DNA of 64,000 nt, from IMG/VR virus record IMGVR_UViG_3300042337_000070, positions 43,943 to 107,942 of that record; one strand, given 5' to 3'. The notes under the pieces were generated by a model. That model had not been told where the DNA came from. It saw only the letters and a list, made by a program, of their open reading frames with translations, and made no database searches. A program made the translations under genes and the position numbers. Positions 1-11,887 of the stretch are shown here, in pieces. Positions within the stretch are counted from its first letter, which is position 1. Each line of letters begins with the position of its first letter. This stretch comes from a virus.

Positions 1-205
1 CTCTGATGCTATTTAGTAGATAATGGTATTGCATGGTACCAGGTAGATTAGGAAACCTATTCATTTCATTAGCTTGCAAAATGCAATCATAGTGAAACGA
101 GATTGCCCGGTTCACTATGAAAGCATTATACTGTTTGTCCTCCTCCAGCACAGGAGTTTTGTGCTGGAGGATGCTTGGTATTATATCTTTAAAAAGATCA
201 ACCAT
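1..205 (-). CDS. 62: gp62-like clamp-loader small subunit, 3' part off the left edge
   Basis: Reads ATG at 205 as MVDLFKDIIPSILQHK and stays open to base 1. The segments YNAFIVNRAISFHYD and LQANEMNRFPNLPGTMQYH match the pattern I know from gp62 of T4-like phages (VNR, NEMN, then a Y/F-rich helix before a basic KRKRF stretch, which would lie beyond the edge). In T4, gp62 and gp44 form the clamp loader that places the gp45 clamp on primer-template DNA. The start overlaps the stop of the DUF262-type gene by 8 bases, so translation is probably coupled to it rather than to gp44. Only 68 codons are visible. Identification is by remembered pattern, not alignment. Confidence 0.75.
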   Translation of the reverse strand, partial: MVDLFKDIIPSILQHKTPVLEEDKQYNAFIVNRAISFHYDCILQANEMNRFPNLPGTMQYHYLLNSIR

Positions 206-1739
206 TCACTACCTCTTTAGGATTAGGACGGGCACTTTGCATACGATTCTTTCCCGTCTCAATAACTTCATAGTTGCCCTTAATACGATGTCCGCCACGG
301 GCAACAGGGACGATTTCATTCACTTCATACTTGTGTGACTCTGAAAGTGGAACACCAGCTTCAACAAGAGCCTCATCCCTTGACACACCTGAGCGGCTAC
401 CAACTTTAGCAATGATAGCGGCATTCTCTAGATTCGTCAAGTCTTCCTTGAGGTCTGCAAGGATATAACGAACACGTGCCCAATCAGTGAATGTATAACG
501 TGAACCACCTTCACCTGTTACAGACTCCTTAGAAGAATGCTTCTGGTCACCGTTATGCTTATTGAATGACCATTCATGAGCAGACTTCTTTTGCTTCTTA
601 GAAGAGGGAGAAGTGAAGAAAGAGTAGGTACCCGTAGCATTCAGGCGAGCATGTTCTTTATCAAGGAACCACTTTGCAAATGCACTAGCATTCTTGATAG
701 TATATTGACCATCAATACCAATAGGCTTACTCCAGTTATTACCCTTCTGTAGCAAGAAGGAGATAGTATAGAACATGTTGTATAGGGAAGAACGACTAAA
801 CTTTTTTAGCTTGCTCTCGCCGTAGGCAACGCAACCATCTGCCATAATACGAAGAATCTTTGCGGTTAGTTCCTTATCTTTAGAAGAGATAACGATATTC
901 ATCTGAGGATCAGGATACGAACCCATGAACGCATTAAGATCACGTTCATTATATCCTTCGTAGGTGTTGCAGTTGATATAGCGAAGCATTTCGGCAACGA
1001 ACAGAGTATCACCCTTATGATCCAAACTATACTCTCCGGACATCTGCTTAACTTTTGATAGAGTCCAACGAAGGTTCATATCATCACGGCAAAGATCGAT
1101 GATCCATCGATTGATTGGATTGTAATTGAGAATACGGCGCTCATGATTGGTCATAGGCATCATGTCATTAGACGTAATGAACACCTGTGCCAACTCACGA
1201 AGATCACCAGTCCGATAGGTTGTAACAACCACAGGAATATCACGAAGATATTCCTGTGCCTCTTCTGGCATCTTAGAGAAAAGACCCTTAACGTAAATGC
1301 TACCGGACTCTTCTGGGTTCTTTAGTTCGATAAGGGAGAGAGGCTTGAAGTTAATACGGTCTTCAAAGTACCGAGCAATCGTATCAATACGATGCTGACC
1401 GTCAAGGACAAGATACTTAAAACCCTGATTTGAAATGTTCTCAAAGTATTCGAGATTGTCCTTGATAAACTCGTAGTTTGGTTCGTTACGAGTCAAACGA
1501 CTGCGGAGACTTTCAATGATAGGATCAATTTCTGCAATCTGAAATAGATCCTTACATGATCCGCCATTGAAAAGAAACGTCAAATAGGACGCCTTCTTCC
1601 AATCAATCCATTCAATTAGAAGTCGCTGAAGCTTTTCCCGATCATAGAAAAACTCCTTATTGTGGTGCATTGCATAGATTTCACCAACGGTGAAAGCACG
1701 AACATTAGACTCAATCTGTTGGGATACATTCTGTAGCAC
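198..1739 (-). CDS. DUF262/DGQHR-type protein with degenerate HNH-like C-terminus
   Basis: 513 residues. Residues 106-122 (GFKYLVLDGQHRIDTIA) contain the DGQHR signature of the ParB-like fold shared by DUF262 (GmrS-type) and DndB-type proteins. Near the C-terminus, EVNEIVPVARGG followed by N and KNR resembles an HNH/DUF1524 nuclease motif, but the usual D-H pair is N-E, so nuclease activity is doubtful. I chose GTG at 1739: it follows GAGGAAG at good spacing, while the longer frame to 1787 would start inside a strong hairpin. It sits between the two clamp-loader genes, which are normally adjacent, and has its own promoter. Possible roles: an anti-restriction or exclusion factor, DNA-modification related, or homing-type cargo. 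Function is not established. Confidence 0.7.
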   Translation of the reverse strand: MLQNVSQQIESNVRAFTVGEIYAMHHNKEFFYDREKLQRLLIEWIDWKKASYLTFLFNGGSCKDLFQIAEIDPIIESLRSRLTRNEPNYEFIKDNLEYFENISNQGFKYLVLDGQHRIDTIARYFEDRINFKPLSLIELKNPEESGSIYVKGLFSKMPEEAQEYLRDIPVVVTTYRTGDLRELAQVFITSNDMMPMTNHERRILNYNPINRWIIDLCRDDMNLRWTLSKVKQMSGEYSLDHKGDTLFVAEMLRYINCNTYEGYNERDLNAFMGSYPDPQMNIVISSKDKELTAKILRIMADGCVAYGESKLKKFSRSSLYNMFYTISFLLQKGNNWSKPIGIDGQYTIKNASAFAKWFLDKEHARLNATGTYSFFTSPSSKKQKKSAHEWSFNKHNGDQKHSSKESVTGEGGSRYTFTDWARVRYILADLKEDLTNLENAAIIAKVGSRSGVSRDEALVEAGVPLSESHKYEVNEIVPVARGGHRIKGNYEVIETGKNRMQSARPNPKEVVNG

Positions 1740-1769
1740 GGTATTTCTTCCTCTTCGGTTACAAGAAAT

Positions 1770-1796
1770 GGGAAGGAAGCACTTCACTTCCTTCCC
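1770..1796 (-). terminator. Perfect 10-bp hairpin between gp44 and the DUF262-type gene
   Basis: GGGAAGGAAG (1770-1779) pairs with CTTCCTTCCC (1787-1796) around a 7-base loop; on the minus strand ATTTCTT follows. It lies in the leader of the DUF262-type gene, downstream of its promoter, so it may be a weak terminator for gp44 transcripts or a 5' UTR structure of the next gene. The U tract is imperfect. Confidence 0.5.
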
Positions 1797-1797
1797 A

Positions 1798-1813
1798 CTG
1801 TCGAAATCGACAG
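1798..1813. promoter_or_regulatory. Operator-like palindrome CTGTCGA-AA-TCGACAG
   Basis: Perfect 7-bp inverted repeat with a 2-base centre, immediately downstream of the minus-strand -10 box at 1821-1826, so it would cover roughly +1 to +16. This is the classic position for a dimeric repressor operator. A half-site (CTGTCGA) also lies in the gp45 promoter spacer near 4210. Confidence 0.5.
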
Positions 1814-1820
1814 TATGTAT

Positions 1821-1849
1821 ATACTACTATATTGACTTAGGAATGTCAA
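1821..1849 (-). promoter_or_regulatory. Sigma70-like promoter for the DUF262-type gene
   Basis: On the minus strand TTGACA (1849-1844), 17-base spacer, TAGTAT (1826-1821). It overlaps the end of gp44 closely and gives the inserted gene transcription independent of the clamp operon. Confidence 0.75.
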
Positions 1850-1852
1850 GCA

Positions 1853-2791
1853 TTATTTCACTTCACATTCGATCATAATCTCAGTGAGGCAAGCAACAAG
1901 ATTCAATTCTTGATCGGCAACAAATGCCGACTGATACTGATACTTTGCCAGTGTAACAACCGCAACAGGGATTGTCTCTGGTTTCAGATACTCATACAGG
2001 TTATCATAAACAGAACGATAGATGCGAGTAGGATCGATGTCAGAATTTAACACAACCCATTTACGCATGGCAGTGAAGTCTTTATCTTTGATAGACTTGA
2101 TTAGTTCATTGAGGCTGCGAACGCTATCAAGTTGAGAAACAAGACCAGAATCAATGCCTCCAGAAACAGAATACCGTTGTAACTCATTAAGAGTTCTGCG
2201 ATAATCCGGAAAATACTTTTCAACGACCTTTGCGAGGACTTGCTTGTCATATTCCACACCCTCTTTTGAAACGATCTGTTCCAGACGCTTGAACATTCTG
2301 CCAGCCATTTGAGGCTTCTCGTTGTTCTTGAGCGTAAAGTCCACAACAGAACAACGAGAATGAATAGCGTCTTTGATCTTCGCTTTGAAATTACAAGTGA
2401 AGATGAATGAACAGTTAGAAGAAAACTTTTCGATAACACCTCTTAAGGCATCTTGAGTGTCAGGTGTTAGACCGTCGGCCTCGTCTAGAATGATAACCTT
2501 ACGTCCGCCAGTCAGAGATACAGTTGACGCATATCCAACGACCTTCGTTCTTAGAACATCGATACCACGTTCCTCAGATGAATTGATAAAGAGGTAGTTA
2601 CAACCAATCTCGTCACACATGGCCATGGCTGCGGTCGTCTTACCGCAGCCAGCAGGACCTGACAATAGAAGATTTGGAATCTCACCATTGTTCACATACT
2701 CTTGAAACGCTTTCTTTATCCGATCGGGGAGAATACAGTCCTCAATCTTATGAGGTCTGTAGCGTTCGACCCAGAGGAAGTCTTCACTCAT
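1853..2791 (-). CDS. 44: Clamp-loader large subunit, AAA+ ATPase (gp44)
   Basis: 312 residues, close to T4 gp44 (about 319). Residues 7-13 read WVERYRP, the usual clamp-loader opening; Walker A GPAGCGKT at 45-52; Walker B ILDEAD at about 101-106; a sensor-1 type TCN and an SRC arginine-finger motif (HSRC) follow. In T4 four gp44 and one gp62 form the loader that opens and closes the gp45 ring during leading and lagging strand synthesis and late transcription. ATG at 2791 was preferred to the longer frame because AAAGGA sits 5 bases upstream and the start overlaps the stop of the small membrane protein gene before it. gp62 is displaced from its normal downstream position by the DUF262-type gene. 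Confidence 0.95.
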   Translation of the reverse strand: MSEDFLWVERYRPHKIEDCILPDRIKKAFQEYVNNGEIPNLLLSGPAGCGKTTAAMAMCDEIGCNYLFINSSEERGIDVLRTKVVGYASTVSLTGGRKVIILDEADGLTPDTQDALRGVIEKFSSNCSFIFTCNFKAKIKDAIHSRCSVVDFTLKNNEKPQMAGRMFKRLEQIVSKEGVEYDKQVLAKVVEKYFPDYRRTLNELQRYSVSGGIDSGLVSQLDSVRSLNELIKSIKDKDFTAMRKWVVLNSDIDPTRIYRSVYDNLYEYLKPETIPVAVVTLAKYQYQSAFVADQELNLVACLTEIMIECEVK

Positions 2792-3242: not shown

Positions 3243-3512
3243 TCACTTTACTCCATCTTTTAGTTGAATGATTGCAGAAGGATTGATGCAAAGAAATCCA
3301 TCACCATGTCCTTTCACATAGTCGAAAGGTTCGACAGCATATCCACCAGCATCAATGCACGATTCTTTGAATGCTTTACGATGGGCCATCCATTCGTTTG
3401 AATCTGTGATAGCCCAGTAAAGAAACACTATCACAAAAAGTATAGTGCTGACAATGTAAGCGGCAAATGAGACTTCCGCCCACAGAATGTTTCCCTCATA
3501 ATCTCTAAACAT
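3243..3512 (-). CDS. Single-pass membrane protein, 89 residues
   Basis: MFRDYEGNILWAEVSF then a membrane segment AAYIVSTILFVIVFLYWAI (about residues 16-34), followed by a cytoplasmic-type domain with a CIDAGGY stretch and FLCINPSAIIQL near the end. ATG at 3512 shares its A with the gp45 stop (TGATG), and GGAG sits 8 bases upstream inside gp45, so I use this start rather than the longer TTG frame. Translation is likely coupled to gp45. No family recognised. Confidence 0.75.
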   Translation of the reverse strand: MFRDYEGNILWAEVSFAAYIVSTILFVIVFLYWAITDSNEWMAHRKAFKESCIDAGGYAVEPFDYVKGHGDGFLCINPSAIIQLKDGVK

Positions 3513-4165
3513 CACTTCGACTCCAAAGCGATCCAATACTTTAGATTACCTGATGTGTTTTCAAACTTGGCAAATGCACCCGCCTGAACCTCTACGGTAT
3601 AATCATCAGGAAGAAGCTTGAGATTATCAGTCTTAAACGTGGCAGTGAAGTCCTTGCCAGCATAATCACCGATCTTCTGCACACCGTCATTAGACGTATC
3701 ATTAGACTTCTCATGAATCTTAAGAAGCAACTCGCCGTCCTTGCCAATGACAGATAGATTTGGTAGGTTAATCATTGATGCGACCTTGATTAGCTTTGCT
3801 GAGGTTGCATTAGGTAGAGAGAAACTTGTGGTGATATCCTTGAGAACAAGTTCCTTATCTGGAGGGGTGATGATAAGGTTTGGTGAACATGCACGATAAC
3901 TAATGACGAGTTCGCCGTCATTTAGTGTTACGGTCTCGCCATTGAATGAGATTTCTGGGTTCTTTAGAGTCGTCAGAATACCTAGAAACTGATTCAGATC
4001 ATAGATGCCGAACTGAGTTGGAATATCGTCACCCAGAGTTGCTTCGACCAGAATGGACTTTTCAGGAGAAATAGTTCGCTGTATTCTTCCTTTATTGAGG
4101 ACTGCGCCGCTGTTGATAGAGGCAAAATTCTTAAGTACCGATAGAGTTTTTTCACTAAGTTGCAT
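3512..4165 (-). CDS. 45: Sliding clamp, DNA polymerase processivity factor (gp45)
   Basis: 217 residues (T4 gp45 is about 228). MQLSEKTLSVLKNFASIN at the N-terminus, GIYDLNQFLGIL in the middle and GNLKYWIALESK at the end follow the gp45 pattern of two repeated clamp domains. In T4 the gp45 trimer tethers the polymerase and also activates late transcription through gp33/gp55, so it links replication to the late promoters seen at 23-64 kb. RBS AAAAGGAG lies upstream of ATG. It has its own promoter at 4192-4220, overlapping the end of the kinase gene. Confidence 0.93.
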   Translation of the reverse strand: MQLSEKTLSVLKNFASINSGAVLNKGRIQRTISPEKSILVEATLGDDIPTQFGIYDLNQFLGILTTLKNPEISFNGETVTLNDGELVISYRACSPNLIITPPDKELVLKDITTSFSLPNATSAKLIKVASMINLPNLSVIGKDGELLLKIHEKSNDTSNDGVQKIGDYAGKDFTATFKTDNLKLLPDDYTVEVQAGAFAKFENTSGNLKYWIALESK

Positions 4166-10264: not shown

Positions 10265-11887
10265 TTACTTAACCTTTCTGAAAACGAAAACCGGTTCATA
10301 TTTGAGCATGATCTTTTTACCATTATTCTCAATCTGACAAAAGTTTTTCATTTTACCTTCTAGGATTGTTTCTCTCTCTTCCTCACCGGTTAGTGGGTTG
10401 ATTGTAACTGTCTCGCCTGTTTCGACCATTCGATTACCACCAGGCATCTGAGCAAGTGCCATCTTTAGAGTTGTAACATACTCCATACCTAGTTCTTTTA
10501 AAATGTTACAAGAATCTTCTTCTAGAGGCAGAAGATTGTTATCAAATGCAGCATCAGCAATATTCCAGAGAAGATAACGATCCTTTCTCAAATATCTAAC
10601 GGCAGTCTCTAGAGTAGGTCTTAGAAATCCATCAACCCAATCTGCATACTGAGAAAACTTATGACAAGATTGTTCGGGATCATCAGAGTAAACTTCCTTA
10701 GCAAAATAAGGAGGTGAGGTAAACACTAGATCGAGTTTACCTTCATATTTCTGAAATCCTGGTTGAAACTGTGCCATTTCAGATCCACACTGAAAAATTT
10801 CATATGTGTGTGACTTCGGGAACAGACTTCCAGATTCTCTAACCTGTTCATTGAAGAAATCGGCCACTTCATGATATTTGGTTCGACCCGAATGGGTGTT
10901 ATGATCGGTGTTAGGATCTGTACCTATGTAATGTATGTTGCGTTTATCATCCACTGACATAGCACCAACGATGCGGCCTGCCCATCCTGAGGAAGGATCC
11001 CATATATTGATCTGGTCCTGATCCCTGATGTGATCGGTAAAACGCTCATAAAGATAACGAGCGGTGAGAGGTGGAAAGTTGACCGCATACTGACAGAAGG
11101 ACACACGGAATGATTTGAGACCCATAGGGAACACTTTCTGTCCACGCTTAAAGAGCCGAATGTTGTATTTCATCGATCTATTAGGATTGACATTTGTGAT
11201 GGTTCTTTCTGCTTGCTTGATAGCAAAGGTGTAGTCAACAATAACGTTCTGTTTTTTACCCAAGGTGGCAGAGTACCCAGTGTATTGCTTGTCCTCTTTG
11301 ACAGGACAAAACCAATAGTCCCACTCATCAGATTTCAATTCTTCCATTTTAGCAACAAACTGTTCGGATGATTCGACAGAGAATGTTGAGTTACCAATCT
11401 TAACAACATCTCCGAATGAGATTGGTGTTGAGTGATGATAGAATGAGTCTCTTTTGAAATGCCTTGAAGCATATGTAATAAAGGTTTCTAGATATGCGTC
11501 ATCGGCGAAATAGTCATAGATCGACTTAGACTTACCCTTTGTCGAATATGAAATGCCTGTCTTCATCATGGTCGGGAACCACTGATTGACAGCATTACCT
11601 ACTATAGAGGTATTACGAATAACATCTTTCTCACCCGTGCGAAGATCGACTGTCTCAAACTCATGCACAGGGAAGCCAACCATCTTTTGAAAGTTATCAA
11701 TGATACCTTCTTTATTAAATCCTACTCTTGGAGGAATGCCTTTGTTATCCCATAGATTGACTACGGTTTTTCGTAGGTCGATCACCCATTGACGAAATTC
11801 AACCTCATTCATCCATAACAGTTCCTCAAATGTCTTATTGACATGCGAGTTTAGGAGTTCATCGTTTCTTTCATAGAACCATTGCAT
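10265..11887 (-). CDS. SAM-dependent DNA methylase-like protein with long N-terminal extension
   Basis: 540 residues. SAM-binding motif I WDPSSGWAGRIVGA begins near residue 296; the catalytic motif TSPPYF lies near 389-394 (S/D-PPY class, N4-cytosine or N6-adenine amino methylases). About 280 residues precede motif I, including KGIPPRVGF and FPMGLKSFRVSFCQYAVN, which I do not recognise and which could be a target-recognition or a second catalytic domain. The start overlaps the upstream glycosyltransferase-like gene by 17 bases with AAGGA inside that gene, so translation is coupled. Linked to a PLP enzyme and a sugar transferase, it may act in base hypermodification rather than simple methylation. 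Confidence 0.75.
   Translation of the reverse strand: MQWFYERNDELLNSHVNKTFEELLWMNEVEFRQWVIDLRKTVVNLWDNKGIPPRVGFNKEGIIDNFQKMVGFPVHEFETVDLRTGEKDVIRNTSIVGNAVNQWFPTMMKTGISYSTKGKSKSIYDYFADDAYLETFITYASRHFKRDSFYHHSTPISFGDVVKIGNSTFSVESSEQFVAKMEELKSDEWDYWFCPVKEDKQYTGYSATLGKKQNVIVDYTFAIKQAERTITNVNPNRSMKYNIRLFKRGQKVFPMGLKSFRVSFCQYAVNFPPLTARYLYERFTDHIRDQDQINIWDPSSGWAGRIVGAMSVDDKRNIHYIGTDPNTDHNTHSGRTKYHEVADFFNEQVRESGSLFPKSHTYEIFQCGSEMAQFQPGFQKYEGKLDLVFTSPPYFAKEVYSDDPEQSCHKFSQYADWVDGFLRPTLETAVRYLRKDRYLLWNIADAAFDNNLLPLEEDSCNILKELGMEYVTTLKMALAQMPGGNRMVETGETVTINPLTGEEERETILEGKMKNFCQIENNGKKIMLKYEPVFVFRKVK

What the first reader, a model, noticed from the sequence alone, without database searches (positions are those of the whole stretch)
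198..2791. DUF262/DGQHR gene inserted inside the clamp-loader operon
In T4 and relatives gp44 and gp62 are adjacent and translationally coupled because they form one complex. Here a 513-residue DGQHR protein with its own sigma70-like promoter, leader hairpin and operator-like palindrome separates them, and gp62 now overlaps the stop of the inserted gene. Insertion of a defence-like or homing-like gene at an essential junction suggests either mobile cargo or a counter-defence function tied to replication.
Basis: partly seen in the sequence, partly recalled or inferred. Interest (0 to 1): 0.72.

Follow-up and report, generated by a model that had tools for sequence, protein, structure and literature searches.

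The report
Roaming nuclease-like gene in phage operon
In a T4-like virus of bacteria, a gene related to bacterial DNA-cutting defence enzymes, but with a key catalytic residue replaced in every known relative, has slipped between two genes of the DNA-copying machinery, at a spot where related viruses repeatedly swap DNA-cutting and DNA-modifying genes in and out.

Summary
A 513-aa DGQHR gene ("X", 198-1739, minus strand) lies exactly between the gp44 stop and the gp62 start, after a weak sigma70-like site and a strongly folded leader; gp62 overlaps its stop by 8 nt. X's fold is of the GmrSD/BrxU/SspE (ParB/Srx) type, and its C-terminus matches an HNH domain. In all 22 family members compared, the HNH general-base His is Glu, while both HNH Asn residues are kept. 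X is not ancestral: nine relatives with 85-91% identical gp44 lack it at this site. About 30 homologs in IMG/VR sit mostly between gp45 and gp44, once upstream of gp45, and elsewhere in unrelated phages; two phages 96-98% identical in DNA carry different X genes (58% identical) at different junctions. The gp44-gp62 junction is itself a hotspot: 56 of 125 non-redundant loci carry an insert, about 45 of them encoding nuclease-, methylase- or ParB-like proteins. Cultured cyanophages also carry genes there, so the split alone is not unusual. Best reading: a horizontally mobile, self-contained GmrSD-like cassette behaving like a free-standing homing or competition gene, with a non-canonical HNH site. 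Activity is untested; counter-defence by a dedicated pseudo-nuclease is the main rival.

The parts
198..1739 (-). X: DGQHR/GmrS-like protein with an HNH-like tail, 513 aa, GTG start (a 529-aa reading starts at 1787)
1623..1628 (-). QR motif (residues 54-55 in 529-aa numbering), invariant in the X family
   Evidence: motif definition from PMC4619093
1389..1403 (-). DGQHR motif (residues 129-133), invariant
1167..1181 (-). FxxxN motif (residues 203-207), F and N invariant
234..350 (-). HNH-like region (residues 480-518): [DN]E-x-x-P...GG-x-R...N...N
315..317 (-). Glu491, at the position of the HNH general-base His; Glu in all 22 X proteins compared, His in all 33 members of the sister family A4
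1770..1796 (-). leader hairpin 2, GGGAAGGAAG-TGAAGTG-CTTCCTTCCC
1798..1813 (-). leader hairpin 1 (the 'operator-like palindrome'), CTGTCGATTTCGACAG
1748..1753 (-). Shine-Dalgarno-like GAGGAA, 8 nt before the GTG start
   Evidence: sequence
1821..1849 (-). sigma70-like site TTGACA-17-TAGTAT just after the gp44 stop (10 of 12 matches; not in excess of chance)
1853..2791 (-). gp44 clamp-loader large subunit
2..205 (-). gp62 clamp-loader small subunit, first 68 codons (rest outside the window)
198..205 (-). 8-nt overlap of X stop and gp62 start (ATGGTTGA)
3512..4165 (-). gp45 sliding clamp (in most relatives X lies between gp45 and gp44)

Best explanation
X is a horizontally mobile accessory cassette: a leader with tandem hairpins plus one gene, with a terminator in several relatives, that has been inserted exactly between the gp44 stop and the gp62 start. 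The junction is a turnover hotspot for nuclease, methylase and ParB-like genes. The protein is a GmrSD/BrxU/SspE-type machine: a ParB/Srx-fold DGQHR domain joined to a C-terminal HNH-like domain whose catalytic His is Glu throughout the family. Shown here: insertion, mobility, motifs, fold class, the His-to-Glu replacement and purifying selection. Inferred: the leader limits early expression; the DGQHR domain binds a nucleotide and DNA; the protein nicks or blocks DNA of co-infecting phages that lack it; repair against the carrier copies the cassette in (intronless-homing-like spread) or simply favours the carrier. Positions around gp45-gp44-gp62 would then reflect a target in, or repair tracts through, these conserved genes.
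For: Nine relatives with gp44 85-91% identical lack X at this site: six have gp62 coupled directly to gp44, three carry other inserts; no match in the available records of 18 related loci (many are fragments). About 30 X homologs in IMG/VR: most lie 15-45 nt before gp44 after gp45, one upstream of gp45, others elsewhere. L245 and L248 are 96-98% identical in DNA (gp44 99%) but carry X genes only 58% identical at different junctions, each empty in the other. L258, with the closest X (61%), shares no other detectable gene with the parent genome stretch examined. Hotspot: 56 of 125 junctions occupied; 8 of 92 lineages (95% gp44 identity) mix states; gp62-regA control 125 of 131 at 30 nt or less. 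About 45 of 56 inserts nuclease/MTase/ParB-like, some profile-confirmed, others by motif. Fold: BrxU Z 7.8, SspE 6.6, DndB 4.5; C-terminus matches HNH structures. Full-length profile match to the phage DUF262-HNH family, prob 98.4. dN/dS 0.05-0.25 in most close pairs over the whole gene.
Against: The canonical HNH dyad is absent, and in bacterial GmrSD enzymes double mutation of the Asp/Glu-His pair abolishes defence (PMC12373910), so self-driven homing by cleavage is not assured. No cleavage site, co-conversion tract or mixed-infection inheritance was shown. The C-terminal model has modest confidence (pLDDT 67) and Foldseek E-values above 0.5. X spread over clamp-operon junctions could also reflect selection for early expression there. 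The structured leader is strong in the window but not in all homologs.
Confidence: 0.5

Rival explanations
1. X is a dedicated pseudo-nuclease: having lost the HNH His, it keeps the GmrS-like NTPase/dimerisation module and poisons or decoys host GmrSD/BrxU/SspE-type restriction, i.e. counter-defence that happens to be expressed with replication genes.
For: His replaced by Glu in all 22 family members while the rest of the fold and motifs stay under purifying selection; GmrSD enzymes are dimers (BrxU) and a major pressure on T4-like phages, which carry several unrelated GmrSD inhibitors (PMC12373910; PMC12707154).
Against: Glu491, Pro494, Gly498/499, Arg501, Asn505 and Asn514 are invariant, more than a dead domain needs; no host partner identified; the other inserts at this junction are mostly predicted active nucleases or methylases.
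Confidence: 0.22
2. X is a type IV-like restriction weapon used against competing phages (superinfection exclusion) without homing; its mobility is ordinary phage recombination at a permissive junction.
For: Architecture of modification-dependent restriction enzymes; the junction also collects restriction-like pairs of methylase and PD-(D/E)XK genes.
Against: Altered HNH site; no evidence on the DNA modification of carrier or competitors (no thymidylate-synthase-family hydroxymethylase found in the parent record).
Confidence: 0.18
3. X is a replication partner gene (for example a clamp-loader or clamp cofactor) whose neighbourhood with gp45/gp44 is functional and whose position drifts.
For: About 24 of 29 placeable homologs lie by gp45/gp44.
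Against: Absent at this site from nine close relatives; two near-identical phages hold clearly diverged X copies (58% identical) at different junctions; found in phages at other loci.
Confidence: 0.07
4. Decaying passenger or assembly artefact without function.
For: Catalytic His missing; single window.
Against: Intact 513-codon frame, family-wide conservation of the Glu variant, dN/dS well below 1, and the same gene at gp44 flanks in independent assemblies.
Confidence: 0.03

Closest known systems
Phage DUF262-HNH proteins (PHROG phrog_1583-like; here alignment A4)
   Same: Full-length profile homology (prob 98.4, E 8e-15); also found at gp44-gp62 and just upstream of gp45 in T4-like contigs
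   Different: A4 proteins have an invariant HNH His (33 of 33); X has Glu. N-terminal motif is DGG[NH]R there, DGQHR in X. Only about 15% identity
GmrSD / BrxU type IV restriction enzymes (DUF262 + DUF1524)
   Same: QR, DGQ[QH]R and FxxxN motifs, ParB/Srx fold, C-terminal HNH-like domain; best structural match BrxU (Z 7.8 and 7.0)
   Different: Below Pfam cut-off; D/E-H-N-N reads D/N-E-N-N; phage-borne and mobile; no restriction shown
SspE and DndB (phosphorothioate systems)
   Same: DGQHR/DUF262-type fold (SspE Z 6.6, DndB Z 4.5)
   Different: Linked ssp/dnd genes were not searched for; no sequence-level match in the PDB
T4 free-standing homing endonucleases (Seg, Mob)
   Same: Free-standing gene between conserved core genes, patchy presence, folded leader, junctions rich in GIY-YIG/HNH genes
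   Different: X is not of the Seg/Mob families, has a non-canonical HNH site, and homing was not shown

Membership tests
GmrSD type IV restriction enzyme | GmrS motifs QR, DGQQR (DGQHR in DGQHR domains), FxxxN | tested here: met
   Invariant in 22 X proteins; motif definition PMC4619093
GmrSD type IV restriction enzyme | Pfam GmrSD_N above the curated cut-off | tested here: not met
   17 bits vs 33.2
GmrSD type IV restriction enzyme | C-terminal D/E-H-N-N HNH motif | tested here: not met
   Reads D/N-E-N-N: His replaced by Glu491, both Asn kept
GmrSD type IV restriction enzyme | ParB/Srx fold like BrxU | tested here: inconclusive
   Top VIA-align rows are BrxU and SspE, Z 6.2-7.8, ParB/Srx rows at 4-5; Z under 8. 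GmrSD N-terminal proteins of viruses at E 1e-9
GmrSD type IV restriction enzyme | NTP-dependent cleavage of modified DNA | not testable with these tools
   needs enzyme assay
TIGR03187 DGQHR domain | score above NCBIfam cut-off | tested here: not met
   14.3 vs 58.85 bits
Phage DUF262-HNH family (A4) | full-length profile homology | tested here: met
   hhalign prob 98.4, E 8.4e-15, 398 columns
Phage DUF262-HNH family (A4) | invariant HNH His | tested here: not met
   Glu491 aligns with His452 of A4
Free-standing homing endonuclease | free-standing gene between conserved genes, absent from close relatives | tested here: met
Free-standing homing endonuclease | recognised nuclease family with intact active site | tested here: not met
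   HNH-like with His to Glu
Free-standing homing endonuclease | site-specific break in recipient and biased inheritance in mixed infection | not testable with these tools
   needs phage crosses
DndB / SspE of phosphorothioate systems | linked dnd/ssp modification genes | not tested
   no dedicated search was run

The most novel reading that the evidence does not exclude
The X family is a GmrSD-derived, phage-only lineage whose HNH fold works with Glu in place of the general-base His, and which spreads between T4-like phages by targeting the clamp and clamp-loader genes: a new class of NTP-gated homing or competition enzyme.
Probability: 0.2. Interest if true: 0.85.

Novelty: new variant of a known kind. 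Interest (0 to 1): 0.6.

Why it matters
It links two topics usually kept apart: GmrSD/SspE-type defence enzymes of bacteria and the free-standing mobile genes of T4-like phages. If X acts on DNA, its conserved Glu-for-His site is a new variant of a very common nuclease fold; if it does not, it is a mobile family of dedicated pseudo-nucleases, a natural candidate for blocking GmrSD-type defence. The gp45-gp44-gp62 operon also emerges as a natural laboratory for insertion turnover, with near-identical phage pairs that give ready-made empty and occupied sites.

Tried and rejected
No X relative in INPHARED phages, PLSDB plasmids or, by the conserved-peptide scan, in 84,980 prokaryote species genomes, so a recent bacterial donor could not be shown. 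The first viral scan with the single protein found nothing because its 8-residue patterns fell outside conserved stretches; the DGQHRIDT DNA pattern worked. No PDB sequence match for X; no Rfam match in the leader region. Literature searches for the PADLOC name NsnA, and for gp44-gp62 as a hotspot, gave nothing useful; absence from this library does not prove absence from the literature. The palindrome as a genome-wide operator was rejected: one copy only. Ancestral core gene was rejected by empty junctions in close relatives. A gp62 hairpin seen in passing was not pursued because it overlaps LQ/LE codons. A co-conversion test was not made. Several insert classes (PD-(D/E)XK, some GIY-YIG) rest on motifs read by eye, without Pfam support.

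Full report
Observation. The window is the last 64 kb of a 107,942-base IMG/VR record from a T4-like virus. On the minus strand the order is gp45, three small ORFs, gp44, X, gp62; gp62 and regA follow in the parent record. X reads 513 aa from a GTG at 1739 preceded by GAGGAA. gp44's homology to its relatives runs to its stop codon and gp62's begins at its ATG, so the insert is exactly the stretch between them. X's stop overlaps gp62's ATG by 8 nt, and its end carries the ribosome-binding stretch AGAGGTAGTGAATG; the tail runs six residues past the end of the closest homolog. A sigma70-like site follows the gp44 stop, but such sites are not in excess of chance here. The leader between it and the start folds into tandem hairpins (z -5.2); no other leader tested in this phage does so.

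Relatives at this junction. Loci with gp44 85-91% identical (L001-L009) lack X there: six have gp62 coupled to gp44 and three carry different inserts. In 125 non-redundant loci found through gp44, 67 are coupled, 56 carry inserts of 276 to 3,078 nt, and 2 are intermediate. Eight of 92 lineages clustered at 95% gp44 identity contain more than one state, and only 60% of pairs with gp44 at least 98% identical share junction content. The next junction, gp62 to regA, is at most 30 nt in 125 of 131 (this set includes loci fetched through the DUF262-HNH family). gp45 to gp44 also varies. Of the 56 inserts I count about 45 that encode a nuclease-like, methylase-like or ParB-like protein. Some are supported by profiles: homing endonuclease phrog_314 (L035, L202), Endonuclease_7 (L050), HNH (L025, L210), endonuclease (L033, L213), MethyltransfD12 (L019), N6_N4_Mtase (L027, L233). 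The commonest class, 18 loci with invariant EKD...D...EVK in the six members aligned, is assigned by motif only. Most inserts start at or before the end of the gp44 stop codon and many overlap gp62's start. Cultured cyanophages show the same: HNH and Dam genes in P-HM1, Dam in ACG-2014j, a methylase in S-CAM1, phrog_19197 in S-SM2 and S-PRM1. Separation of gp44 from gp62 is therefore common in this branch; Stenotrophomonas phage Moby is empty.

The X family. A DNA pattern for DGQHRIDT and a profile scan gave about 30 loci, 42-61% identical to X where full length. None was found in cultured phages, plasmids or prokaryote genomes. Most lie just before gp44, after gp45; L245 lies upstream of gp45; L258, L261, L263 and L246, L269 lie elsewhere. 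L245 and L248 are 96-98% identical in DNA, yet L245 carries its X after a CobS-like gene where L248 has 53 nt, and L248 carries a different X between gp45 and gp44 where L245 has 5 nt; L248 also has a 655-bp insert after gp44 that L245 and L247 lack. X identity between the two is 58% against 99% for gp44. L258, holder of the closest X (61%), shares no other detectable gene with the stretch of the parent genome examined. Several copies end in a terminator-like hairpin; the window copy has none and instead reads into gp62. dN/dS is 0.05-0.25 over the whole gene in most close pairs; two pairs are higher (0.31 and 0.49) and the C-terminal part is sometimes near 0.6.

Protein. X keeps QR, DGQHR and FxxxN, the motifs of GmrS and DGQHR domains (PMC4619093). 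The AlphaFold2 model (pLDDT 78.5, pTM 0.59) is closest to BrxU (Z 7.8), SspE (6.6) and DndB (4.5), then ParB and sulfiredoxin. By the tool's own note, Z below 8 alone is weak; the case rests on the agreement of motifs, profile homology and fold list. The C-terminal domain alone (pLDDT 67) matches almost only HNH nucleases, at low significance. Profile comparison with 33 phage DUF262-HNH proteins gives probability 98.4 over 398 columns and sets Glu491 on their invariant His. Glu491, Pro494, Gly498, Gly499, Arg501, Asn505 and Asn514 are invariant in X. Mutating the Asp/Glu-His pair kills defence by bacterial GmrSD (PMC12373910), so X is either a pseudo-nuclease or a variant active site.

How it most likely works. 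Shown: precise insertion, hotspot, mobility, family-wide Glu, fold class, purifying selection. Inferred: the folded leader limits early expression; the DGQHR domain binds nucleotide and DNA; X acts on DNA of X-free co-infecting phages; the cassette spreads by repair or by advantage to the carrier. T4 free-standing endonucleases can cleave hundreds to thousands of bases from their gene (PMC2988022), which would fit X sitting at several junctions of one operon, but no cleavage or co-conversion was shown here. The main rival is a pseudo-nuclease acting against host GmrSD-type defence; the second is a competition weapon without homing.

Placement and novelty. X works like the GmrSD/SspE class but fails two membership tests (curated cut-off, catalytic His), so I call it GmrSD-like, not a GmrSD. 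It is homologous to phage DUF262-HNH proteins and forms a separate branch. I rate it a new variant of a known kind.

Noticed in passing
window 130-170, minus strand (gp62 codons about 12-24): An 11-bp perfect hairpin CCTCCAGCACA...TGTGCTGGAGG inside the gp62 coding start; partial equivalents in L003, L005 and L021, but it overlaps LQ/LE codons.
   Followed up: partly
L003:2500-3597, L072:4420-5487, L022:3138-4153: A second ParB-like family, phrog_2615 (E 6e-65), occupies gp44-gp62 in some phages and lies near purM in cyanophages such as ACG-2014d.
   Followed up: partly
L045, L047, L057, L060, L061, L063, L070, L075, L167-L169, L175, L184-L186, L206, L207, L229: An about 150-aa PD-(D/E)XK-like family with invariant EKD...D...EVK (six members aligned) is the commonest gene at the junction; no Pfam match for the member scanned.
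   Followed up: partly
L028:2330-3712 and L045:6019-7182: Further ParB-like proteins (GNQRTR, DGRTRIRA motifs) beside PD-(D/E)XK or methylase genes at the same junction, resembling small restriction-modification islets.
   Followed up: no
L288:3391-4620 and L269:2610-3908: A membrane desaturase or alkane-monooxygenase-like gene lies next to an X homolog in a phage contig.
   Followed up: no
L250, L254, L262, L266 (X genes): X genes look mosaic: identical C-terminal parts with diverged N-terminal parts between some pairs (L254 and L266), suggesting recombination inside the gene.
   Followed up: partly
window 10265-11887, minus strand: 540-aa N6/N4 DNA methylase-like gene (Pfam N6_N4_Mtase 1.6e-5, just below cut-off) in the same phage.
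   Followed up: no
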